Shown in pieces: positions 12,159 to 63,164 of a DNA stretch of 64,000 nucleotides. Origin of the DNA: Magnolia sinica (Eukaryota > Streptophyta > Magnoliopsida > Magnoliales > Magnoliaceae); assembly GCF_029962835.1 (NCBI RefSeq), contig NC_080588.1:65124001-65188000 (forward strand), read 5' to 3'. Positions within the stretch are counted from its first letter, which is position 1, and each line of letters starts with the position of its first letter. The notes under the pieces were generated by a model. The model was not told the DNA's origin and made no database searches. It was given only the letters and a program-made list of their open reading frames with translations. The position numbers were made by a program, and so were the translations under genes.

Positions 12159-39639
<27,481 letters not shown>

Positions 39640-41821: not shown

Positions 41822-43060
41822 TCCACGTCGTCCATCCATTTTTCTATCTAATTTAAGGGGTTGAGCCCCAAATTGAAGCATATCAAAATATCAAGTGAAT
41901 CATACCACGGAAAACAGTGGGCATAATGATTTTCTAGTTTGCCTCGCTGATTTTATTTTTCCCCGCTCAATTTCATATAGACCTCGCTGATTTTTCAGTT
42001 TGTCCCGCTCAATTTCATGTTTGCCCCGCTCAATTTCATGCTTGCCCCGCTCATTTCCTTGTTTGCCCCACTCAATTTCATGTTTCCCCCGCTCAATTTC
42101 ATGTTTCCCCCGCTGAATTTCATGTTTGCCCCGCTGAATTCCTAGTTTGCCCCACTGAATTCCTAGTTTGCTCCATTGATTTTTTAGTTTGTCCCGCTGA
42201 ATTTCATATTTCTCCCGCTCATTTTTCAGTTTTTCCCGCTGAATTTTTTGTTTCCCCCGCTGAATTTCATGTTTGTCCCGCTGATTTTTTAGTTTACCCC
42301 GCTGAATTTCATGTTTCCCCCGTTGAATTTCATGTTTGCCCTACTCATTTTTCAATTTTTCTCGCTGAATTTCCTGTTTCCCCCGCTGAATTTCATGTTT
42401 GCCCCGCTCAATTTGCAGTTTTTCCTGCTAAATTTCATGTTTCACCTGTTGAATTTCATCATTTGCCCCACTGAATATCATGTTTCCCCCACTGAAAATC
42501 AAGTCGATTTCATGTTTTCCCCGATGAATTTAATGTTTCCCCCGCTGAATTTCATGTTTGTCCCGTCCAATTTCATGTTTACCTTGTTTAATGTCAAGGT
42601 TCCCTCCCTTGAATATACGTGTTCTCAAATGTAAAAATTACAGCATCTATTTAATTTATCCTGATTCAAGATAATATCCCATAAGACCCATATTTGTCAT
42701 TTCAAATTTACGATCTAGCCTTTATAAACTCATCAATTATAACACTATCATTGTCTGTGAAGATTAAATCACCAATGTATAAGGATATCAATAATACATC
42801 ACTATAGTCATTGTGTTAACATGGATAACATGCTCATTGAGATAACTTCTTTGTTTGTTATTAAGCCTATTCATAAGATCATACAAACATGAATTAATAG
42901 AAAACACAATTGTAAGCTTGATCTAAAACTTCTGTGGCCCCTAAGAAATGATGAACATGAGAAGTTCAATTCAAAATTTTCATGTACTGTGGTCCATTTG
43001 AACATTGGATACGTTTAGATATTTGGGATCAAGCCATGAAATTATCTGTTAAGTTTACCT
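41822..43060. mobile_element. Remains of a GGGCCCAC-type MITE split by minisatellite array 1
   Basis: Text typical of the family (CCATCCATTTTTCTATCTAA, ACCACGGAAAACAGTGG) runs to 41930. It then gives way to the 21-bp array, and similar text returns at 42860-43050 (AACACAATTGTAAGCTTGAT, CTGTGGTCCATTTGAACATT). Array 2 begins right after. Confidence 0.5.
41930..42611 (+). repeat. 21-bp minisatellite, array 1
   Basis: About 32 units around the consensus GCCCCGCTGAATTTCATGTTT (here written 21 nt in total), with variants CTCATTTTTCAGTTT and GATTTTTTAGTTT. The period of 21 is kept almost everywhere. Variants are shared with arrays 2 and 3. Confidence 0.95.
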
Positions 43061-43690
43061 CGTTGATTTTCCAGTTTGCCCCGCTGAATTGCATGTTTCC
43101 CTCTCTCAATTTCATGTTTGCCTCGCTGATTTCCTAGTTTACCCCACTCAATTTCGTGTTTGTCCCGGTCAATTTCATGTTTGCCTCGCTCAATTTTCAT
43201 ATTTGCCCCGCTCAAATTCAAGGTTGCCCCGCTCATTTTTATGTTTGCCCTGCTCAATTTCATGTTTGCCCCGCTCAATTCCTAGTTTGCCCTGCTCAAT
43301 TTCGTGCTTGCCCCGCTCATTTTCATGTTTGCCTCATTCAATTCCTAGTTTGCTCCGCTCATTTTCATGTTTGCCCCGCTCAAATTCGTGCTTGCCCCGC
43401 TGAATTTCATGTTTGCCCCGCTTAATTTCATGCTTGCCCCGCTCATTTTCTTATTTGCCCCACTCAATTCCTAGCTTACCCCGCTCAAGTTCCAAGTTTG
43501 CCCCGCTCAATTCCTAGTTTGCCCCATTCAATTTCATGCTTGCCCTGCTCATTTTTATGTTTGCCCCACTCAAATCCGTGCTTGCCCCGCTGAATTCCTA
43601 GTTTGCCCCGCTCAATTTTATGCTTGTCCCGCTCAATTCCTAGTTTGCCCCGCTCATTTTTATGCTTGCCCCGCTCATTTTAATCAATGA
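43055..43690 (+). repeat. 21-bp minisatellite, array 2
   Basis: About 30 units, with AATTCCTAGTTTGCCCC and CATTTTCATGTTTGCCC variants frequent. Starts directly within MITE-like text. Confidence 0.95.
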
Positions 43691-44430
43691 AAAAGCATTA
43701 CCTGATGGTTAAGATGTTTTCAACAATGCAACACTGATTCCAAAGCTCAAAATCTCTAATTTTTGGGTGTTGGGTACAAAAGAGATTTTAGGAATCAGTA
43801 CTCTCAGCTGACTGATATCATACACCAAAGAAATATGTATGTACTTCAATAATGCAGATTGGGTTTTCTAGAAGCCACTTAACCGCATTAAAAAAAAAAA
43901 AACAATCTTGATAATTGATCGATTCAATTGTGTTGTGTCAATGTGAATCATGGCCGTGAATGGGATTATTCTACCACAACTCTTGAGGTTTTGTGGGAAC
44001 CTCTGGATGACCACTAGAGCATCGAAACGAAAGTTCTCTTTAAATCCATAGAGTTATGACATCTTGTGGAGAATGGCTATACCAATGTAACTGTAGCTAA
44101 GACACAGGCATTCGAAGGCCTTCCAAACAAGGGAAGAAAAAATTGTTGTATTAGGTGCAACCATGCAGGTGCTTGGATCTAAACTAATCACCCTCTCAAT
44201 CAACAAAGTAGCAATGATAAAAATAGAGACAATGGACAAGAAAATAACAAATCTAACATCTCTTATTCACTTTCAAAACCAAGATGCATGTATCACGTTT
44301 AACACCAACTAATACTCATATTATTAACATAATCTAGATGCATGTAAGTTTCTAAGTTGCAACTTGCAAGTGATTTTCAATTGTAAGTCACTTACAGTGA
44401 AGTGAGCTCATTTTTAGTTTTTTTATATAT
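43691..44430. other. Spacer DNA, nothing recognised
   Basis: Includes a 61-codon minus-strand ORF (44054-44239) without a domain that I recognise. Confidence 0.35.
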
Positions 44431-44438
44431 ATATATAT

Positions 44439-44981
44439 GGGAAAAGGTAATATGCTCTCGACCTCACGAGTCCGTCCCATGAGGTCAAGTTGTGTGGGCC
44501 CCACCGTGATGCGTTTCGAACATCTACCCCATCAGTCAAATGCATCATTCCATCGTGGGCCTAGGTCTCAAAAATCAAGTCAATCCGTGACTTATGTGGG
44601 CCACACCACATATAGAAGTGGAGAGGGGCCGTGCACCATTAAAAATTCATAACCATTTTTTGGGCCCACCGAGATGTGGTTTGCAAATCCAGCCCATCCA
44701 TTATGTGTGTCCCACTTGGATGAGGGTTCAGACCAAGTTTCAGACGCATGCAAATTTCAGGTGGGCCCCACCAAGTGCTTTTATATGTTTTAACGGTGTC
44801 TTCACATGATTTTAGATGGTATGGCCCACCTGAGTTTCGTATACGGCTGATTTTTGGGATATCTCATAATTTAAAGGGGACCCATCAAATGCACGGTGTT
44901 GATGGTCGACACGCATCACGGTGGGGCCCACACAACCTCACGGGAGCTTATCGTGAGGTCGAGCGCATAGTGCCTTTTCCC
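44439..44981. mobile_element. Long-TIR MULE-like MITE, 543 bp, TSD TATATATAT
   Basis: GGGAAAAGGTAATATGCTCT and the reverse complement of the right end (GGGAAAAGGCACTATGCGCT) begin about 75 bp of inverted repeat through GACCTCACG and GTGTGGGCCCCACCGTGATG. Both sides show TATATATAT, 9 bp, although this could be microsatellite. Confidence 0.85.
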
Positions 44982-44990
44982 TATATATAT

Positions 44991-45376
44991 AGGTGTGTGC
45001 TTAGCAAAACTCTATATTATATGATGCAAGTGATTTTGGATGTAATTTTATCACTGATCTAGGTTTTGTCATTTTTGAAGGTCAAGATAAGATTGCTGAT
45101 TTTAAGATGAAGTTCATGGTCATTGACAGCAAGCATCTTGGTGGAAATGGATTCCAATAGGAAACTAATTCCAAGTATTTATATGGGCCCAAACGCATGT
45201 AAGTTGACATGTTTGATCAATGGTTGTTTTGTCTTTATAGGCACTAGCATCTCAATCTCAATGACTCAACTTGTTGCAAGAGTTGTTCGCCGATATAGCT
45301 TTAGAGGTTGATGTTCGAGCTAGGAGTAAGGAGCCAATGCATTATCTGTTTTTCTTTCGACTTGAAAGGTTTTCAA
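44991..45376. other. Spacer DNA, nothing recognised
   Basis: Short ORFs only. Confidence 0.35.
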
Positions 45377-45888
45377 TTTCATGTTCGCTCCGCTGAATTT
45401 CATGCTTGCCCCGCTCAATTTCATGTCTGCCCTACTTAATTTCCAGTTTGCCCCGCTCAATTTCATGCTTGCCTCGCTGAATTTTCAGTTTGCACCACTC
45501 AATTTCATGCTTGCCCCGCTCAATTTCATGTTTGCCCCGTTGAATTTCATGTGTGCCCCGCTCAATTTCATGCTTGCCCCGCTCAATTTCATGTTTGCAC
45601 CGCTGAATTTTCAGTTTGCCCTGCTCAATTTCATGCTTGCCCCGCTCAATTTCCAGTTTGCACCGCTCAATTTCATGCTTGCCCCGCTCAATTTCCAATT
45701 TGCCCCACTCAATTTCATGTTTGCCCCACTCAATTTTATGCTTTCCCCGCTGAATTTCATATTTGCCCCACTCAATTTCCAGTTTACCCCGCTCAATTTC
45801 AGGTTTCCCCCGCTCAATTTTCAATTTGCCCCGCTCAATTTCATGCTTGCCCCGCTCAATTTCCAGTTTGCCCCGCTAAATTCTTGTG
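45377..45888 (+). repeat. 21-bp minisatellite, array 3 (most regular)
   Basis: About 24 units, mostly GCCCCGCTCAATTTCATGCT plus T. The 21-bp period equals seven codons. The plus strand therefore reads APLNFMF/APLNFML repeats (open 45381-45980) and the minus strand reads GKHEIER repeats (open 45432-45824). Confidence 0.97.
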
Positions 45889-55900: not shown

Positions 55901-58900
55901 AGTTGTATACAGCATTTCATCACCTTATGGTTGAAGGAACATCAAATTCTTCCCCACAAGGTTGTCAATTGTCAAGTCAAATTCTCTAAGCGGGCATAGT
56001 AGAGGGCTGTTTGGATACAACGAATCTATGGGAAAACAAACGGTTTTCCCTTGATTTGATGTTTATGGATGTTTGGATTGAAAAGAAAACCATGGATTCC
56101 ACGTAGTAATCATTACTTTATTCACAATTGGTGCAAGATACAAGGTGACCATTGTCTTATGAGAAATTGGATTTCTACTTTCTATCCAAACAGACCACCC
56201 CTTTGGGAATCCACCGGTGAATTGTCCCGGAGATAATAATAGTTACAGTTTTCCATGTCCACACCATGGATTCGTCATCATCAAACAGGCCCTTAGTCAC
56301 TTTGTGTGGTCATCCAAATGACCGGCAATCAAAATGGGGACAAAATTAGGTAACATATGTACAGTCTTCTGCACTCGGTGGTAACCTGTGACATGGAACT
56401 AAGAAGCAAAACTGGAGTCGCTTAATCCTACAGGGGAGTTAAATATCATGTCATGGCTCATATAGCCTGCATGATTATATGATTTGGCACAGATTAATGA
56501 TGTGACAGAGAAGACATGAAAATCAAGCTGATATTCAATTGCAGCAAATCCAGCACTTCAACAGCAAGAAGGCAGATAAACATGGACTTAGTTTATCAGA
56601 ACAAGGGTTGCTTCCGAGGAGATCAGGAAATATGTGAAGTTTCAAGACCAACTTGATGATGTTAACACTATCTTAGTAGGGCAATGCTTCAGTCATTTTA
56701 GCCAAGGCATATCTATACACCAATTTGAGGCGGAGCATTGAATGATACACTTTCATAGGAGCACCTCATTTCGTCTTTAGATGATAGGCTGGTGGTCCTC
56801 AGGGGCATTTATATAACCTGGAACCCTAGTTTAATTAAAATGTGTAGTGAAACATAGCACACACCAAATAGCTGGAACTGTGATAATGATGACACCGACG
56901 ATGATGCGAGATGTATCTACATGCAACTTCATCTTAGTACCATATGCATCATGTCAGCACCTCAAACTTGCCAGGAAGTTTGGGCTCTGAGGATTCCATG
57001 CGATGCAACGAAAATAAAATAGGAAATGCCCTACGGAGACACATGAACATGTCCAACAGATACACAGACTATAGTTGCATGACGTGTGAAGCAAAGCAGA
57101 AACATATTCAGGTACAGGACCAGGGAAGCGTCCAGTTCAAGATGTTAGCAAGTATAAATGGCTAGGGAAGCAAAAGCAGGAGCAGGATTCAAATCAGGAC
57201 CATCAACTGATTAGTAGGATGGTGTAACCAACTAAGACTAAAATGGCCAGGACAAGTCTATGATCATGATACTGAGTTGATGATGTATATAGGCAAAAGA
57301 TGTAATGCACAAGGTCATTTCCTTTAGGGGGGAAAAATAAAAAGGAACCATGTAAGTAATGATCATTACATCTTTTGCCTCAAGGAAATGACTTCAATGC
57401 ATCATCTTTCGCCTAATGCTTTCCGTATTGTTATCGCGTAATGTACCGCACCCTTGGGATACGGATACATATCGGTTATCACATGGGATATATCGGTTGT
57501 ATCATGAAATTTATCGCTACTGTTGGAAAACATCGGGAAACATTGGGAAATTGGTTGAATTTTTCAATGAAACTACAGGGATTAATAAAAAAGACACCAA
57601 TACACACTTATATTATATATATATATATATATATAAAATATATTCCTTTGTATAGGGTCTTAATGCATGCATTGTCTAACTGAACTGATGCAACTACATT
57701 CAAAGTTGATTCATAAAATTTATAAATGTAAGAAGATATGTATAGAAACACAAGCATTATATTCAAAAGCAAAAGAAGTAGAAAACTAGAAATATACTTG
57801 TGTATCAATGTCGTTGAAATTGTTATCGTATCACAAATCGTAATGTGCGTTGCATCGTATCGAATCATAAATCGTAAGTTTTTTTATGATTTTCTCAAAA
57901 ATATGAAAAATATAAATAAATCATTAAAAAAAATAAAATAAAAACTTACCAATCATCCTTTTTTCATCAATATGCACCAAGTAATACCATGTCATAATAG
58001 TGTTAAAGGATTCATATCTTTAAGTCTTTCAAAAACATGTCTTTAAAGCATACAAGGATCCTTTAATAATTTATGTTCTCGTTAGACTTTTTTCAATGTA
58101 GAATTGCGTTGGAAAAGCAACATTTGATTATGTAGACCAACAAAAAAGGATATTTTGATTTCTAACCATCATTCCACAATACATATAAAAGTTAGCATGA
58201 TCGTGACCATCAATAAAAACATTCCAGATAAGTCATACATCAATTTGGTGTTTTGACCAGTTAAGAAATAAGAAATTTAGAAAAAAAAAAAAAACTCTAC
58301 AATTTAATGTTGATGAGAATATATATCATTAAATCTCTTATAGAACAAAATAAAGTAATTTACCTTTTCTAAACGATTCTTTCTTTTTCTTTTTTTGAAA
58401 GGTTCTAAATGATTCTTAAAGCCATAACCAATTCAAAAACATAAAATGAAAACCAAGTGAAGCTTAAAATAGAAGAGAACAAGTACAATTTGAATCGTAA
58501 ATGGTAGGATTCAAATCATAAAATCATAAGATTCATATTAAAAAGGATTCAAAGGTGGGATTCATCCTTTTGCTTAAGAATCGACTCAAATCTTAAGATT
58601 TTGACAACGTTGTTGTGGATTTTATTATATTTATATATAAACATTTTTTAAATATTTTTAATTAAAAAATTAATTTTTCTGAAAAATCCCCAAATTGGAA
58701 TGAATGTGTAGATCAGGTTATATATGTTTGATTTCATGTTTGGGCACTAAGATTGCAATCGATTTGAGAAAAATTGAGGAAATTTCAATTTTTCTCCAAG
58801 TTTTTGCAACTTGGCCAATCTCCCCTAAATCTCAAAATAAAAAGCTCCAAATCCATAAATTTTCATGCAAAACATGAAAAATCATGGATTTTTTTTATCA

Positions 58901-59079
58901 TTTGACACTATTTACAACATATAAAAATGGAAAAAAAAAAAAAAAAAACCAAATCAAAACTAAAAAATGCACACCTTCTAGAATCCGGCCACAAAAAGCT
59001 TTCAATCGAGATTTTCTTCCAACAAACTAGAGTGGATTGGTCGAAATCACCTTATAATGTACTAGGAAGAATTTTTTTT

Positions 59080-59115
<36 letters not shown>

Positions 59116-62100
59116 TGAATTTTTTAGGATTTTCCATACAAAACAGCATCGGTTTTCTTTTATCCCTTTCGATATCAATATATCGCATGATGCGTTAAGA
59201 ATTTTAAAAGTGGGAGTGTGGATATATTGCACGATATCGCGATATCCATGAAATATCACGATATCATGCGATATATTACATGATGCCATGAAAAATGGAT
59301 GTTAAAGCTAAGTTTCATATCGCCCAGCTAGAATAACGGATATCTTGTGGGATATATCAGTGATATCGCAAGATACTGAAAACACTGCTTTCGCCTAAAG
59401 GAAGAGCTTCCTGCATCACGTCTTTCACCTAAAGGAATACCTTTATACATTACTTCTTTCACCTAAGGGGAATATTTGTTGTCCTCAAAGCTTCCACTTC
59501 TTACTCGTCATGGTCTAGATCCACATCTTAATTTATGCCTAGCATTCACCTTCTGATCAAAGTAGAATCTTTGAAGGAGGTCATGTTGTCTATAATCTTG
59601 TCATCTCCCAAAGCCCACTAGTGTAGAGAAGCATTGACATTGCAAAAATACAAGCGGCGCCCATTTGCCAGAACCATCCTAAGAATTGTAGAATATTTGC
59701 TTACTGAGCTTGTGACTTTTTCCTATGAATGAGATCTGCCACTTCTTCTAGCTTCTCACAACCAGTATTCGAAGTATCGGTATCATTACAAGTTTTGTTG
59801 GTCAGGGATACAGAAACAATATTGATATCGCCAATAATATTGCCAATAACCGGAAATGCAGGAAAACATCAGGGACACATAGCGAAAGCAATGGAATTTT
59901 TCAACCAAACTTCGGGAGATGCTAAAATACACATTTGCATATTTAGGAATCAAAAAATTGCAAAAAGAATGCATACATAATAAGCTTCTATTTAATGGGG
60001 GCCTACAAGCATGTGTTGTCATAAGAAATCAGTCTAACCATCCCATCTATCCATCCAACCATCCAACCTTTTATCCAAACATCCATCGATATTTTAGAAT
60101 ATTGACAGCGCACGTCAACAACTGGAAAGGAAACAAAAGATCGTGGTCTCGATATCGGCCTTATTGTAATAACAATAATATTAAGATATTATCGTCGACA
60201 AATTGAACACTGCATACAACCATGTGCCCATTAAAAGAAAAAATGAAATGGAATTTTTTTTAATAAACAGATTTTTGGCAAGAGCGATACGTTGATGATA
60301 TTATCGAAATATCACCAATACATTCCCAATATAAGAGACACCGGGAATCTATACAGTAAAAAATATTAGCGATACATTAGCGATATCGATACACTAGCAA
60401 TACAAGCGACGCCTGAAATTTACACAGTCGAAAATATTGGTGATATCGATACATTGGCGATACTTAATGATACATGGCCGATACCTGAAATTTCCGATAC
60501 TGCCAGTGTTATCGGTATCGCAACCAGCGTTATTGATATTGCCACCAGTGTTATCGGTATAACCGAGCTAGAGATACAGATAATATTGGGGATATTTCGA
60601 TAATATCAGGGATACTTCAAACAATGCTCACAACCAATATTTGGTAGCACTACATACTTTCTTGGAATGAGCCAGTGGCAATCAAACCAGATATCAAAAA
60701 TTTACATCAGTGCAATAAGAAATTGTCCTTTCCCCTGTATCTACTATTACTTAATTTTACAAAGCATCTATCACTCATCTGATCTATGGTTTAACTGAAG
60801 ATACGGTCCTTCATAAAGTGGAATGGCAAAACAGCATTCACATTAGCTGACCCCAATTAATTGGGAAAAGGCTTAGATGATGATGATGATCTATCATTCA
60901 TCTCACTGGAGAAACTTTTAAATGGGTCTTCTTGACTCTCAATCCATCCAGTCGAGCTGTCTGATGTGCTAACAGCTTCAAACCATGAACTTTACTATGT
61001 CACAAGGCAATCTGAGTAACCCATCTCAGCATCACAGGTCTTCTAAACAAGGCAAGCAAATGAAAAGCAAAGAACACGAGAAAGAAATTTACCAGAGAAG
61101 GAAAAGCATCAATAGCTTGAATAACTGTTCTCATGAAAAGCAAAGGTAGAGGAGTTTGTTCAACCTGAAAAGGTATTTGTTCAAGTAATCAATGTTGCTA
61201 TAAATAACTCTGAATTAACCTTCGGAAAAAATAAATAACTCCAAATTAGCATAGAGCAGCATTTACATACCAGCAGGTTCAAAGCTTTTACTAAGACGTG
61301 CTGAGTAAAAACTGTGCGTTGCTCAAAACAAGCTGTGCAAGCATCCGTTATCTGGAAACATATCACAGTTTCACCAACATCTGACATAAATAACTACAAA
61401 AATAAGAACAAATGACATGATGTTCAAAAAACATGCCTTCTTAAGTGCAATCCCATCCTTCTCGGGATTAATGTCATGAATAGCAACCAACACTTCTGCA
61501 GGTGTTAATGCTGGACCTGTATGAGCTGAACCCTGCCACGCAACATTCCAGTACATTCAGAATGCATTTAGACAGAATTTTGTTTATGAATGACTGGATT
61601 TAAGTAAAAGAGAGAACAAGGAAACAAGTAACAAAGGCTGAGATCAAGGTATTCCATAATGGTAACAGTGGTTGTAACAGGCACCGCCGTCACCCGTTAT
61701 GATACGGGCCATTACAGCCCTCGCAACAGCCATTAAGCTTTTTTATACCTATTTCGGCCCCATAAAGGACCATTACGAGGCCGTTATAGGCTGTTATGAG
61801 TCATTTTTTCTGTAACGACCGTTATGACCTCGTAACATGTAACAGTTACCACCGTCGCCATTACATAACCGTTTTGGAATACCGGGGCTGAGATAGAGGG
61901 AGCAAGCTCCGAACTACGAGTAACCATCTTAACAGTCCATCTCCCACAGGGGAGGTGGCTACCTCATTGGCCGCTATAAATACATAAGTAGAAGAAACGA
62001 TCCAAAAAAGGCAAGATTTTTGGATTTTTAAAAAAATAATAAAGGAAGATGCATTTATAGTGAATTGGTTCTAAAACTTCATATGAATATCTATACTATC

Positions 62101-63164
62101 TGTTCGATAGTTGCTAATAATCCATCTTATTTGGATTTGATCCAATTTGATATTATGACCAATGTTTTAAATATCTTTATCGCGTAAAGTATTGCACCCT
62201 AGGGATACAAATAAATATCGGTTATCGCATGGGATATATTGGTTGTATCACATAATGTATCATTGTTGTTGGGAAACATGGGAACATTGGGAAATTGGTC
62301 AAATTTTTCAATGAAACTTCAGCGATGATTGAAAAAGACATCAATATACACTTCGAAATCAAAACATTACAAAAAAAGAACACAGAATAGGGGTTTCCTT
62401 TGCATGGGGTCCTAATATGTGTGCTTTCCAACTGAACTGATGCAAGTATATTCAAAGTCTATTCATATAGTTTATAAAAGTAAGAAGACATGTATGGAAA
62501 CACAAGCAATACATTCAAAAACAAAAGAAGGATCACTAGACCAGGTTACATACATGTTTAATTTTGTTTTTGGATACAAAAATTGCAACTGATTTGTGAG
62601 AAATTGAGAAATTTTAATATTTCTCAATTTTCCGCAACTTGACCCATCTCCTCCAAATCTCGAAATCGAAGTTCCAAATCCATGATTTTTCATGGAAAAC
62701 ATGAAGAATCATAAATTTGTAACCATTTGACACTGGTTTAACATGATTTGCATCGAAAACATGAATCGAAAATTGAAAATGCTCACTGGATCGAATAGGT
62801 GAGATATAACGGCACTACTTGTGCGTTTCATATCGCACAAGTGAGATACAAGATATATCGTGGGATATATCGGCTGATATCATCGATATTTAAAACATTG
62901 ATTATGACTTCAATTGAATTACCTTAAACTGAAATTAGGTTGATCCAACTGTATACAGAAAGTTTAGTGATTGATCCAAAAGAGAACAAGAAGTCGGAAC
63001 TACTTTCAACTTCTACCCAGAAAGGCTCCAGGAGACTTTCGAGTTATTCCCTCAAACATGAAAAAACAATATAAGGTAAAGATCCATACCCGCAGAATGT
63101 GATCAAGTGCTGACTGGAACTTTTCTAATGGAAGATCAACAAGCCGAGGAAAAATAGGCAAAAC
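52876..63164 (-). CDS. ESP4: Symplekin / ESP4, C-terminal nine exons (gene continues right of window)
   Basis: Nine exons join in one frame of about 250 codons to a stop: 63090-63164, 61437-61532, 61271-61351, 61093-61164, 54709-54753, 53887-53970, 53690-53793, 52876-52993, all with fitting phases (the ninth, upstream, lies outside the window if present). The protein text is the Symplekin C-terminal domain: VLPIFPRLVDLPLEKFQSAL, GPALTPAEVLVAIHDINPEK, ACTACFEQRTVFTQHVLVKA, PLPLLFMRTVIQAIDAFPSL, VDFVMEILAKLVSKQ, IWKMPKLWVGFLKCASQTKP, LPPAQLESALNKYANLRGPL and the tail STLVVLGLVNES with SSVHGATLT. Symplekin is the scaffold of the nuclear cleavage and polyadenylation machinery; Arabidopsis ESP4 acts in 3'-end formation and RNA silencing phenotypes. 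Introns range from 85 bp to 6.3 kb; one is GC-AG. Eight exons are actually seen here. Confidence 0.95.
53288..53515. repeat. 76-bp tandem repeat, three copies
   Basis: The phrase TGCTTAGTTCTGGATTCTGG starts at 53301, 53377 and 53453, and intervening text is practically identical, including GA and A runs. Lies in the last ESP4 intron. Confidence 0.97.
53690..53793 (-). CDS. ESP4: ESP4 exon
   Basis: Acceptor TTGCTTGCAG, donor CCAAG|GTATTT. Reads LPPAQLESALNKYANLRGPL then AAHANQPNIRTTLPR. Confidence 0.96.
53887..53970 (-). CDS. ESP4: ESP4 exon
   Basis: Acceptor TTTATCTGCAG, donor TTAAAG|GTATTG. Reads IWKMPKLWVGFLKCASQTKP then HSFHVLLK. A longer open frame in another phase across this place is a shadow. 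Confidence 0.95.
53971..54708. other. ESP4 intron with A-run
   Basis: A24 near 54250-54273; otherwise nothing recognised. Confidence 0.5.
54709..54753 (-). CDS. ESP4: ESP4 exon (45 nt)
   Basis: Acceptor CATTTTTCAG, donor AGCAG|GTAATT. Reads VDFVMEILAKLVSKQ. Confidence 0.95.
54754..56002. other. Large ESP4 intron, left part
   Basis: T-run at 55022-55040; short ORFs, no domain. Could hold decayed repeats that I cannot assign. Confidence 0.4.
56003..56293. mobile_element. Tourist/hAT-like MITE, 291 bp, 3-bp flank TAG
   Basis: Left AGGGCTGTTTGGATACAACG with ACGAATCTATGG; right end inverted reads AGGGCCTGTTTGATGATGAC with GACGAATCCATGG. TAG on both sides. Confidence 0.7.
56294..57300. other. 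Large ESP4 intron, middle; nothing recognised
   Basis: No element ends or domains seen. Confidence 0.35.
57310..57413. repeat. Degenerate tandem repeat, continued at 59388-59475
   Basis: CATCTTTTGCCTCAAGGAAA, CATCTTTCGCCTAAAGGAA, CACGTCTTTCACCTAAAGGA and CTTCTTTCACCTAAGGGGAA follow each other at 33-37 bp once the MITE 57414-59387 is removed. Confidence 0.7.
57414..59387. mobile_element. hAT-like MITE (TATCG family), 1,974 bp with a nested MITE, TSD CTTTCGCC
   Basis: Left start TAATGCTTTCCGTATTG and right end GATACTGAAAACACTG are diverged inverted repeats of the family type CAATGTTTTAAATATC. The 8-bp CTTTCGCC is perfect at 57406-57413 and 59388-59395. Subterminal TATCG, ATATCGG and GATATC words lie in the first 130 and last 240 bp. 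The 807-bp element 57806-58612 and AT-rich text expand the core. Confidence 0.88.
57806..58612. mobile_element. hAT-like MITE (AATCGTAAG family), 807 bp, nested, TSD TTGTGTAT/TTGTGGAT
   Basis: Left CAATGTCGTTGAAAT and right ATTTTGACAACGTTG pair at 12 of 15 positions. The 8-bp flanks have one mismatch. Subterminal words AATCGTAA, CGTATCGAATC and ATCATAAATCGTAAG at left and CTTAAGAATCGA, TCTTAAGATT at right. Confidence 0.82.
59764..60627. mobile_element. hAT-like MITE (TATCG family), 864 bp, TSD TCACAACC
   Basis: Left AGTATTCGAAGTATC and right end GATACTTCAAACAATGC are inverted repeats. TCACAACC is perfect on both sides (59756-59763, 60628-60635). The last 330 bp are packed with GCGATAC, GATATCGATAC and TTATCGGTAT words. 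Confidence 0.9.
60780..60890 (+). mobile_element. RTE LINE 3' tip
   Basis: GATCTATGGTTTAACTGAAG, CATTAGCTGACCCCAATTAA and the tail GATGATGATGATGAT. Ends as at 14930. Confidence 0.7.
61093..61164 (-). CDS. ESP4: ESP4 exon
   Basis: Acceptor ACCTTTTCAG, donor CTCTG|GTAAAT. Reads VEQTPLPLLFMRTVIQAIDA then FPSL. Confidence 0.96.
61271..61351 (-). CDS. ESP4: ESP4 exon
   Basis: Acceptor ATGTTTCCAG, donor CTGCTG|GTATGT. Reads ITDACTACFEQRTVFTQHVL then VKALNLL. Confidence 0.96.
61437..61532 (-). CDS. ESP4: ESP4 exon with GC donor
   Basis: Acceptor GCGTGGCAG, donor AAGAAG|GCATGT. Reads GSAHTGPALTPAEVLVAIHD then INPEKDGIALKK. No in-frame GT donor is near. Confidence 0.93.
61645..61885. mobile_element. 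MULE-type MITE (GTAACGG family), 241 bp, TSD GGCTGAGAT
   Basis: Left CAAGGTATTCCATAATGGTA, right CCGTTTTGGAATACCGG. Perfect 9-bp GGCTGAGAT at 61636-61644 and 61886-61894. The whole element is a quasi-palindrome of GTAACGG, GGCCATTACAG, CGTTATGACC words. This is the complete reference copy for the pieces at 15893, 16915 and 17071. Confidence 0.93.
62160..62900. mobile_element. hAT-like MITE (TATCG family), 741 bp, perfect 16-bp TIRs, TSD ATTATGAC
   Basis: CAATGTTTTAAATATC and its exact inverse GATATTTAAAACATTG close the element. ATTATGAC is perfect on both sides (62152-62159, 62901-62908). Subterminal GATATAT, TATCGGTTATCGCATG and ATATCGTGGGATATATCGG words. Non-coding core with a T/A-rich middle. 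Clear sister of 57414-59387. Confidence 0.95.
63090..63164 (-). CDS. ESP4: ESP4 exon, first one seen in the window
   Basis: Acceptor CGATATCAG, donor TGCGG|GTATGG. Reads VLPIFPRLVDLPLEKFQSAL then DHILR. Upstream exons are to the right of 64000. Confidence 0.95.

What the first reader, a model, noticed from the sequence alone, without database searches (positions are those of the whole stretch)
57414..62900. A MITE superfamily with common CAAYGTT-like ends but family-specific palindromic subterminal repeats
Elements at 62160, 57414 and 59764 (TATCG words), 57806 (AATCGTAAG words) and 17309 (CATATGCG words) all have 8-bp TSDs and related termini (CAATGTTTTAAA, CAATGTCGTTGAAA, CAACGTTGTTAAA), yet each carries its own short repeat in the terminal 100-300 bp. 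Such repeat arrays look like arrayed binding sites for different transposases. Most of the element consists of these motifs, and I do not know a named family with this design.
Basis: partly seen in the sequence, partly recalled or inferred. Interest (0 to 1): 0.85.

Follow-up and report, generated by a model that had tools for sequence, protein, structure and literature searches.

The report
Magnolia hAT MITE families, word-arrayed ends
Several families of short jumping-gene relics in a magnolia genome share almost the same tips, but behind the tips each carries its own repeated DNA word; longer relatives, one with one of these words and one with a further word, carry the hAT enzyme that presumably reads it, so this is a rich case of a known design rather than a new kind of element.

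Summary
Confirmed, with corrections. All five elements exist with 8-bp target-site duplications (8/8 for three, 7/8 for two) and CARTGTT-type ends. They are non-autonomous hAT elements (three of the families shown to be abundant) in a 1.84-Gb genome that is almost certainly Magnolia sinica. Family-specific words crowd into the terminal 150 bp in four of the five; the 59763 element is an exception.

I found the autonomous-type partner of the CATATGCG family: 4,816 bp, same ends, word arrays at both ends, a perfect 8-bp TSD, and a transposase with a BED-like finger, DUF659 and the hAT-dimer signature. A second DUF659-hAT lineage has CAGTGTTTTAAATA ends like the 62160 family but another word, GTAGCG. 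So one genome holds several word "dialects" under one terminus type. Partners of the TATCG and AATCGTA families were not found.

Transposase-binding subterminal repeats are described hAT biology (Ac, Tag1, Tol2, Herves, Hermes), so these are new families of a known kind. The interesting residue is the testable split between constant tips and switching words.

The parts
62160..62900 (+). Family A MITE, 741 bp; TIR CAATGTTTTAAATATC both ends; TATCG/ATATCG words in terminal 150 bp
   Evidence: TSD ATTATGAC 8/8; all 40 genome places scored (window copy included) match at 89-100%, 5865 first-look candidates; words 14 of 14 in terminal 150 bp of the family consensus
62152..62159 (.). Left TSD of the family A copy (ATTATGAC); right copy at 62901-62908
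57414..59387 (+). Family C element (TATCG words), 1974 bp including nested 57806-58612 element; ends TAATGCTTTCC / CAGTGTTTTCAG
   Evidence: TSD CTTTCGCC 8/8; 79-83% identity to family A over about 360 bp
57806..58612 (+). Family D MITE, 807 bp, nested in C; TIR CAATGTCGTTGAAA / CAACGTTGTCAAAA; AATCGTA words
   Evidence: TSD TTGTGTAT/TTGTGGAT 7/8; 5739 first-look candidates for a query holding most of it, the 40 scored matching over the D part; family consensus CAATGTTGTCAAAATCGTTATCGTATCGCAAATCGTA
59763..60626 (+). Element B (TATCGG/CGATAC words spread through the 3' half), 864 bp; ends CAGTATTCGAAGTATCGG / CATTGTTTGAAGTATC
   Evidence: TSD CTCACAAC 8/8; only 8 of 21 TATCG words in terminal 150 bp; genome copy search unanswered, so its family is not shown; 275 bp at 78% inside the 3230-bp element of L090
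17309..18003 (+). Family E MITE, 695 bp; ends CAACGTTGTTAAATG / CAATGTTGTCAAACCG; CATATGCG(ATCGCATATGC) arrays
   Evidence: TSD GCCATTAC/GCCGTTAC 7/8; 1255 first-look candidates; left end 56 places vs 0 control; partner element G000:C7:47905619-47910434

Best explanation
These are non-autonomous hAT transposons (MITEs) of Magnolia sinica, moved in trans by DUF659-type hAT transposases. The catalytic part of the transposase acts at the short, conserved tip (CARTGTTKTYAAA) and makes 8-bp target duplications. [quoted passage not shown] Shown: ends, TSDs, arrays, abundance of A, D and E, and a complete-looking partner element for family E. Inferred: binding of the words by the BED finger, cross-mobilisation, and the same scheme for families A-D.
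For: 8-bp TSDs and tips. The 4816-bp E-type element: TSD GGTGGGCA 8/8; 20 of 23 CATATGC words within 200 bp of its ends, 8% of its length; 598-aa ORF with DUF659 at 3.6e-58; a separate frame with the hAT-dimer signature, whose counterpart in the degenerate relative L089 scores just over the Pfam cut-off (21.7 vs 21.4 bits). The E MITE's last 100 bp align to the partner's at 91% over 92 columns, gaps allowed (200 shuffles: mean 70, max 84). By eye, E/E2 right-end places (list covering C1 to part of C4) lie 1.2-3.3 kb from 5 of the 150 listed E-type transposase hits. Lineage X: ends CAGTGTTTTAAATAGCGG and CAGTGTATCAAATAGCG, 19 of 20 GTAGCG words in the two terminal stretches, ATTTGAAG beside each end (the two ends belong to two tandem copies, so this is a TSD only if the copies are a segmental duplication); end pattern 1180 places vs 8 control; exact end pattern 1.92-1.97 kb downstream of 3 of the 5 high-scoring (X) DUF659 hits on the stretch covered by that list and at this place in 0 of the 26 others (25, one checked by eye). 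Literature: hAT BED fingers bind subterminal repeats, cooperatively at a palindromic pair in Hermes (PMC10368747 passages), and related fingers differ widely in motif (PMC8097297 passages).
Against: No binding or transposition data. No transposase was found for families A, B, C or D; the D right-end list (65 places), read by eye against the listed transposases, gave none close; one exact A left end lies 2.9 kb from an E-type transposase (C14), nested or chance, not followed. Element B breaks the terminal-array rule. The E partner copy has Phe where relatives have the fourth zinc-ligand Cys, and Pfam does not recognise its BED, so this copy may be inactive. In alignments as permissive as those, A and D ends also reach 83% to the E partner, within the shuffle maximum. 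Among relatives the BED region (median 35%, n=35) is less conserved than DUF659 (56%, n=45), but the linker (30%, n=39) is less conserved still and the C-terminal part is similar (39.5%, n=44), so this is no sign of specially fast BED change. Hermes work found that inner repeats may not be bound in cells, and some maize Ds1 elements move without the hexamer.
Confidence: 0.85

Rival explanations
1. The word arrays are not transposase sites but host-protein or chromatin sites (or grew by local slippage/duplication) and hitch-hike in hAT MITEs whose mobility depends on the tips alone.
For: CpG-containing words and CpG observed/expected of 1.0-1.5 in the elements could bind host factors; some mobile maize Ds1 elements lack the Ac hexamer and still move (PMC3260210 passages); words of element B run deep into it.
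Against: The same word is found at both ends of the element that encodes a transposase; a second transposase lineage has a different word at both ends; known hAT transposases bind such repeats.
Confidence: 0.1
2. The families have unrelated transposases and their tips resemble each other only because hAT tips in general read (T/C)A(A/G)NG.
For: The general hAT tip consensus is short (PMC6027215 passages), and 2766 first-look hAT-dimer candidates exist in the genome.
Against: Similarity runs 13 bases (CARTGTTKTYAAA) in the A, D and E consensuses, and both partner lineages found carry DUF659.
Confidence: 0.2
3. Chance or assembly artefact.
For: The loose window scan alone is near its null.
Against: Strict scan 25 rows vs 0 in four controls; end patterns at 51 to 1180 places on many contigs against 0-8 in controls.
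Confidence: 0.01

Closest known systems
maize Ac/Ds (hAT)
   Same: 8-bp TSD, short TIR, autonomous 4.6-kb element, hexamer AAACGG repeated in the terminal 200 bp and bound by the transposase, many non-autonomous derivatives (PMC3260210 passages)
   Different: Different tip and words; partner transposase here is of the DUF659 type; several words under one tip type in one genome
Arabidopsis Tag1 (hAT)
   Same: Transposase binding subterminal AAACCC and TGACCC motifs (PMC3143072 passages and its reference to Mack and Crawford 2001; the Tag1 papers themselves not read); its TIR beginning CAATGTTTT is recalled, from no call
   Different: Words differ; relation of the transposases not tested
Hermes (housefly hAT)
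   Same: BED fingers bind subterminal repeats, two of them cooperatively at a quasi-palindrome (PMC10368747 passages); weak collinear profile match of the E-type transposase to Hermes, E=0.0097
   Different: AAGT-type repeats, five in the first 55 bp of each end, mostly not paired as palindromes; sequence similarity marginal (QacR chains scored as well)
CGGBP/hAT-19 DNA-binding domains
   Different: Animal and fungal proteins, largely domesticated

Membership tests
hAT superfamily (DNA transposon) | 8-bp target-site duplication | tested here: met
hAT superfamily (DNA transposon) | TIR matching (T/C)A(A/G)NG | tested here: met
   CAATG/CAGTG/CAACG/TAATG tips; consensus from PMC6027215 passages. 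One tip of the E partner (CATTG) and both tips of the 59763 element (CAGTA, CATTG) deviate, and the narrower plant consensus of that paper, (T/C)AGNGNNG, is not met by CAATGTT tips
hAT superfamily (DNA transposon) | RNase H-like transposase with hAT C-terminal dimer domain in the autonomous element | tested here: met
   CATATGCG family: DUF659 3.6e-58; dimer signature in a separate frame; Pfam dimer hit just over cut-off in relative L089; DUF659 is described as a hAT transposase domain (PMC3985635 passages). GTAGCG lineage: DUF659 hits, dimer not read. A-D: partner not found
hAT superfamily (DNA transposon) | N-terminal BED zinc finger | tested here: inconclusive
   C34, C37, H51 and C63 columns nearly invariant among relatives, but no Pfam zf-BED hit for the E-type ORF and the last ligand is Phe in this copy
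MITE (non-autonomous derivative) | Short, high copy number, no transposase, termini shared with an autonomous element | tested here: met
   A, D, E: 0.7-0.9 kb, thousands of first-look candidates; E-type transposase has no tblastn match in the window; shared termini shown for E only. Copy number of B and C not tested
Ac/Ds family proper | AAACGG subterminal hexamer and Ac TIR | not tested
   AAACGG was not counted in the window elements; their top-scoring words are other words
Tag1 family proper | Tag1 transposase homology, AAACCC/TGACCC motifs | not tested
   No Tag1 sequence at hand

The most novel reading that the evidence does not exclude
One genome carries a radiation of DUF659-hAT elements in which the tip read by the catalytic core stays nearly constant while the subterminal word switches with the BED finger (TATCG, AATCGTA, CATATGCGATCGCATATGC, GTAGCGTACGCTAC), giving mutually insulated transposase/MITE dialects: word switching as the speciation step of transposon families.
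Probability: 0.35. Interest if true: 0.6.

Novelty: new member of a known kind. Interest (0 to 1): 0.42.

Why it matters
It gives a natural series - same host, near-identical tips, different words, thousands of candidate copies and at least two transposase lineages - in which the specificity of hAT BED fingers and the way MITEs stay tied to one transposase can be read from sequence and tested directly. The pieces (subterminal repeats, BED binding, MITE cross-mobilisation) are known; the side-by-side switching of words behind one tip is what a specialist would look at twice.

Tried and rejected
Loose TSD/TIR scan as proof: rejected, near chance. L090, a 6.6-kb candidate for an autonomous E element, is an E MITE holding nested elements, including a 3230-bp TATCGG-type hAT element with TSD GGGCCACT. 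L089 (E2 ends at both sides) is two inverted degenerate transposase halves around other sequence, without matching TSDs. A hAT fragment beside an A copy in L053 has no TATCG, AATCGTA or CATATGC array around it. D right-end list against transposase coordinates: none near, compared by eye. Family A right-end search did not complete. Element B genome search did not complete. Other word clusters in the window: 41.9-45.9 kb is a minisatellite-like array; 10.2 kb looks like a B-type fragment. Papers: I read only passages of PMC12595863, PMC6027215, PMC10368747, PMC8097297, PMC7761493, PMC3985635, PMC3260210 and PMC3143072, plus search listings. No listed title or abstract opening names Magnolia hAT MITEs of this kind; but PMC12550479 (MITEs of 207 plant genomes) holds the word Magnolia and was not opened, so these families may already be in its annotation. 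Odds of the novel case were lowered from 0.4 to 0.35 on re-reading (the linker is less conserved than the BED region).

Full report
What is there. The window is G000:C16:65124001-65188000 of a 1.84-Gb genome with 127 contigs. A protein named Magnolia sinica in public data lies on a contig of 82,624,792 bases, exactly the length of this genome's C14, so the host is almost certainly Magnolia sinica. Duplications are perfect for A, B and C and 7 of 8 for D and E.

More than chance? The loose scan of the window is not convincing alone (12 pairs; 4-11 in eight shifted controls). Genome copies settle it. Of copies inspected, 20 of 30 (A), 25 of 30 (E) and 15 of 27 (D) have duplications matching at 7 or 8 of 8 after a small boundary search without its own control (A and E counts include the window copy). 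A strict scan of the 355 kb then held gives 25 rows (24 distinct places, mostly loci fetched as copies) and none in four shifted controls. First-look candidate counts, which are not copy counts, were 5865 for A, 1255 for E and 5739 for a query containing most of D; 40 were scored in each. End patterns against reversed-pattern controls: E left 56 vs 0, E/E2 right 267 vs 0, A left 36-mer 51 vs 0, D right 37-mer 65 vs 0.

Anatomy. Consensus tips: A CAATGTTTTAAATATCG / CAGTGTTTTAAATATCG; D CAATGTTGTCAAAATCG / CAGTGTTGTCAAAATCC; E CAATGTTGTTAAATGCG / CAATGTTGTCAAACCGC. Words sit in the terminal 150 bp on each side: A 14 of 14, E 15 of 15, D 12 of 14 (consensuses), C 10 of 13 (window copy), but B only 8 of 21 (window copy) against expected shares of 0.40, 0.43, 0.36, 0.26 and 0.35. 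B is an exception, and I did not obtain its genome copies. So the statement that most of the element is motif does not hold. A and E (and X below) words form perfect palindromes; D's does not.

The partner of family E. A transposase fragment found between E2-type ends (L089) led to 1937 first-look candidates, 150 scored. The one at C7:47905619-47910434 (minus strand; L091, L092) is 4816 bp long with GGTGGGCA on both sides, ends CATTGTTGTCATGTGCGG and CAATGTTGTCAAACAGC, and 20 of 23 CATATGC words within 200 bp of an end. It encodes a 598-aa frame with DUF659 at 3.6e-58, described as a hAT transposase domain with conserved active site (PMC3985635 passages), followed in another frame by the hAT-dimer signature. 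Its last 100 bp align to the E MITE at 91% with gaps (shuffle maximum 84). In this copy the fourth zinc-ligand cysteine of the BED-like finger seen in relatives is a phenylalanine, so I do not claim that it is active.

A second dialect. DUF659 hits of the genome (150 listed of 2821 first-look candidates) include a high-scoring group, X. The stretch between two tandem X copies (L093) shows a 3' end reading CAGTGTTTTAAATAGCGGTAGCG and a 5' end CAGTGTATCAAATAGCGTACGCTACG, with ATTTGAAG beside both and 19 of 20 GTAGCG words in the two terminal stretches. The ends belong to two neighbouring copies 917 bp apart, so the duplication reading assumes a segmental duplication of one insertion. The tip is that of family A up to CAGTGTTTTAAATA, then the word differs. 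The X end pattern occurs 1180 times against 8 in the control. On the stretch covered by its 100 listed exact places (C1-C3 and C4 to 24.9 Mb), 3 of 5 X hits have it 1.92-1.97 kb downstream; of the 26 other DUF659 hits there none has it so placed, one having it 5.8 kb away in another orientation (coordinates copied by hand; the hit at C4:24550837 was left out of that script and checked by eye, nearest place 367 kb off). The X protein was read only in its C-terminal part; relatives of that part in other plants form a supported clade apart from E's.

Mechanism. The simplest reading is the hAT scheme: tips cut by the catalytic core, words bound by the BED finger, MITEs moved in trans by the transposase that reads their word. 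In Ac, 200 terminal bp with AAACGG repeats are needed for full activity and are bound, though some Ds1 elements move without the hexamer (PMC3260210 passages); Tag1, Tol2 and Herves have their own motifs (PMC3143072 passages); Hermes BED fingers bind a palindromic pair cooperatively, although some inner repeats may not be used in cells (PMC10368747 passages); and related hAT BED domains differ in motif (PMC8097297 passages). Among relatives of the E transposase, median identity is 35% in the BED region (n=35), 30% in the linker (n=39), 56% in DUF659 (n=45) and 39.5% in the C-terminal part (n=44): the BED region is less conserved than the catalytic domain but not unusually so. Binding itself is not shown here.

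What remains open. Whether these families are already in Repbase, Dfam or a published plant MITE set could not be checked.

Verdict. Real, abundant and well formed; families not named in anything I could search, of a known design. The part worth following is the constancy of the tip against the change of the word.

Noticed in passing
17071-18039 and 61645-61886: Two elements with CAAGGTATTCC ends that also carry arrays of a family word (TAACGGT/ACCGTTA type); E is inserted in the first. Duplication length unresolved: the first fits 9 bp (GGTCCCCAC/GTTCCCCAC, 8 of 9), the second 8 bp (GCTGAGAT) with ends in register or 9 bp with one end a base shorter, so Mutator-like or hAT-like is open. The arrayed-word design may reach beyond the CARTGTT group.
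   Followed up: partly
41945-45877: Three clusters of a ~20-bp minisatellite-like unit (around TTTCATGTTTGCCCCGCTGAA) in the window; not transposon ends.
   Followed up: partly
protein P0001: A protein filed under Mycobacterium kansasii (partial, 564-bp contig) is 76% identical to the magnolia hAT transposase piece over 51% of a 129-aa query: probably plant contamination of a bacterial assembly.
   Followed up: no
L090:1529-4758: Nested 3230-bp element with CAGTGTTCGAGTTG ends, TSD AGTGGCCC 8/8 (GGGCCACT on the other strand) and TATCGG words: a further tip variant.
   Followed up: partly
L040:53-1491: 1439-bp C-like element, ends CAATGTTTTTTGTATCG / CAATGTTTTCAGTATCG, TSD CTTAATAC 8/8, directly beside an A copy.
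   Followed up: no
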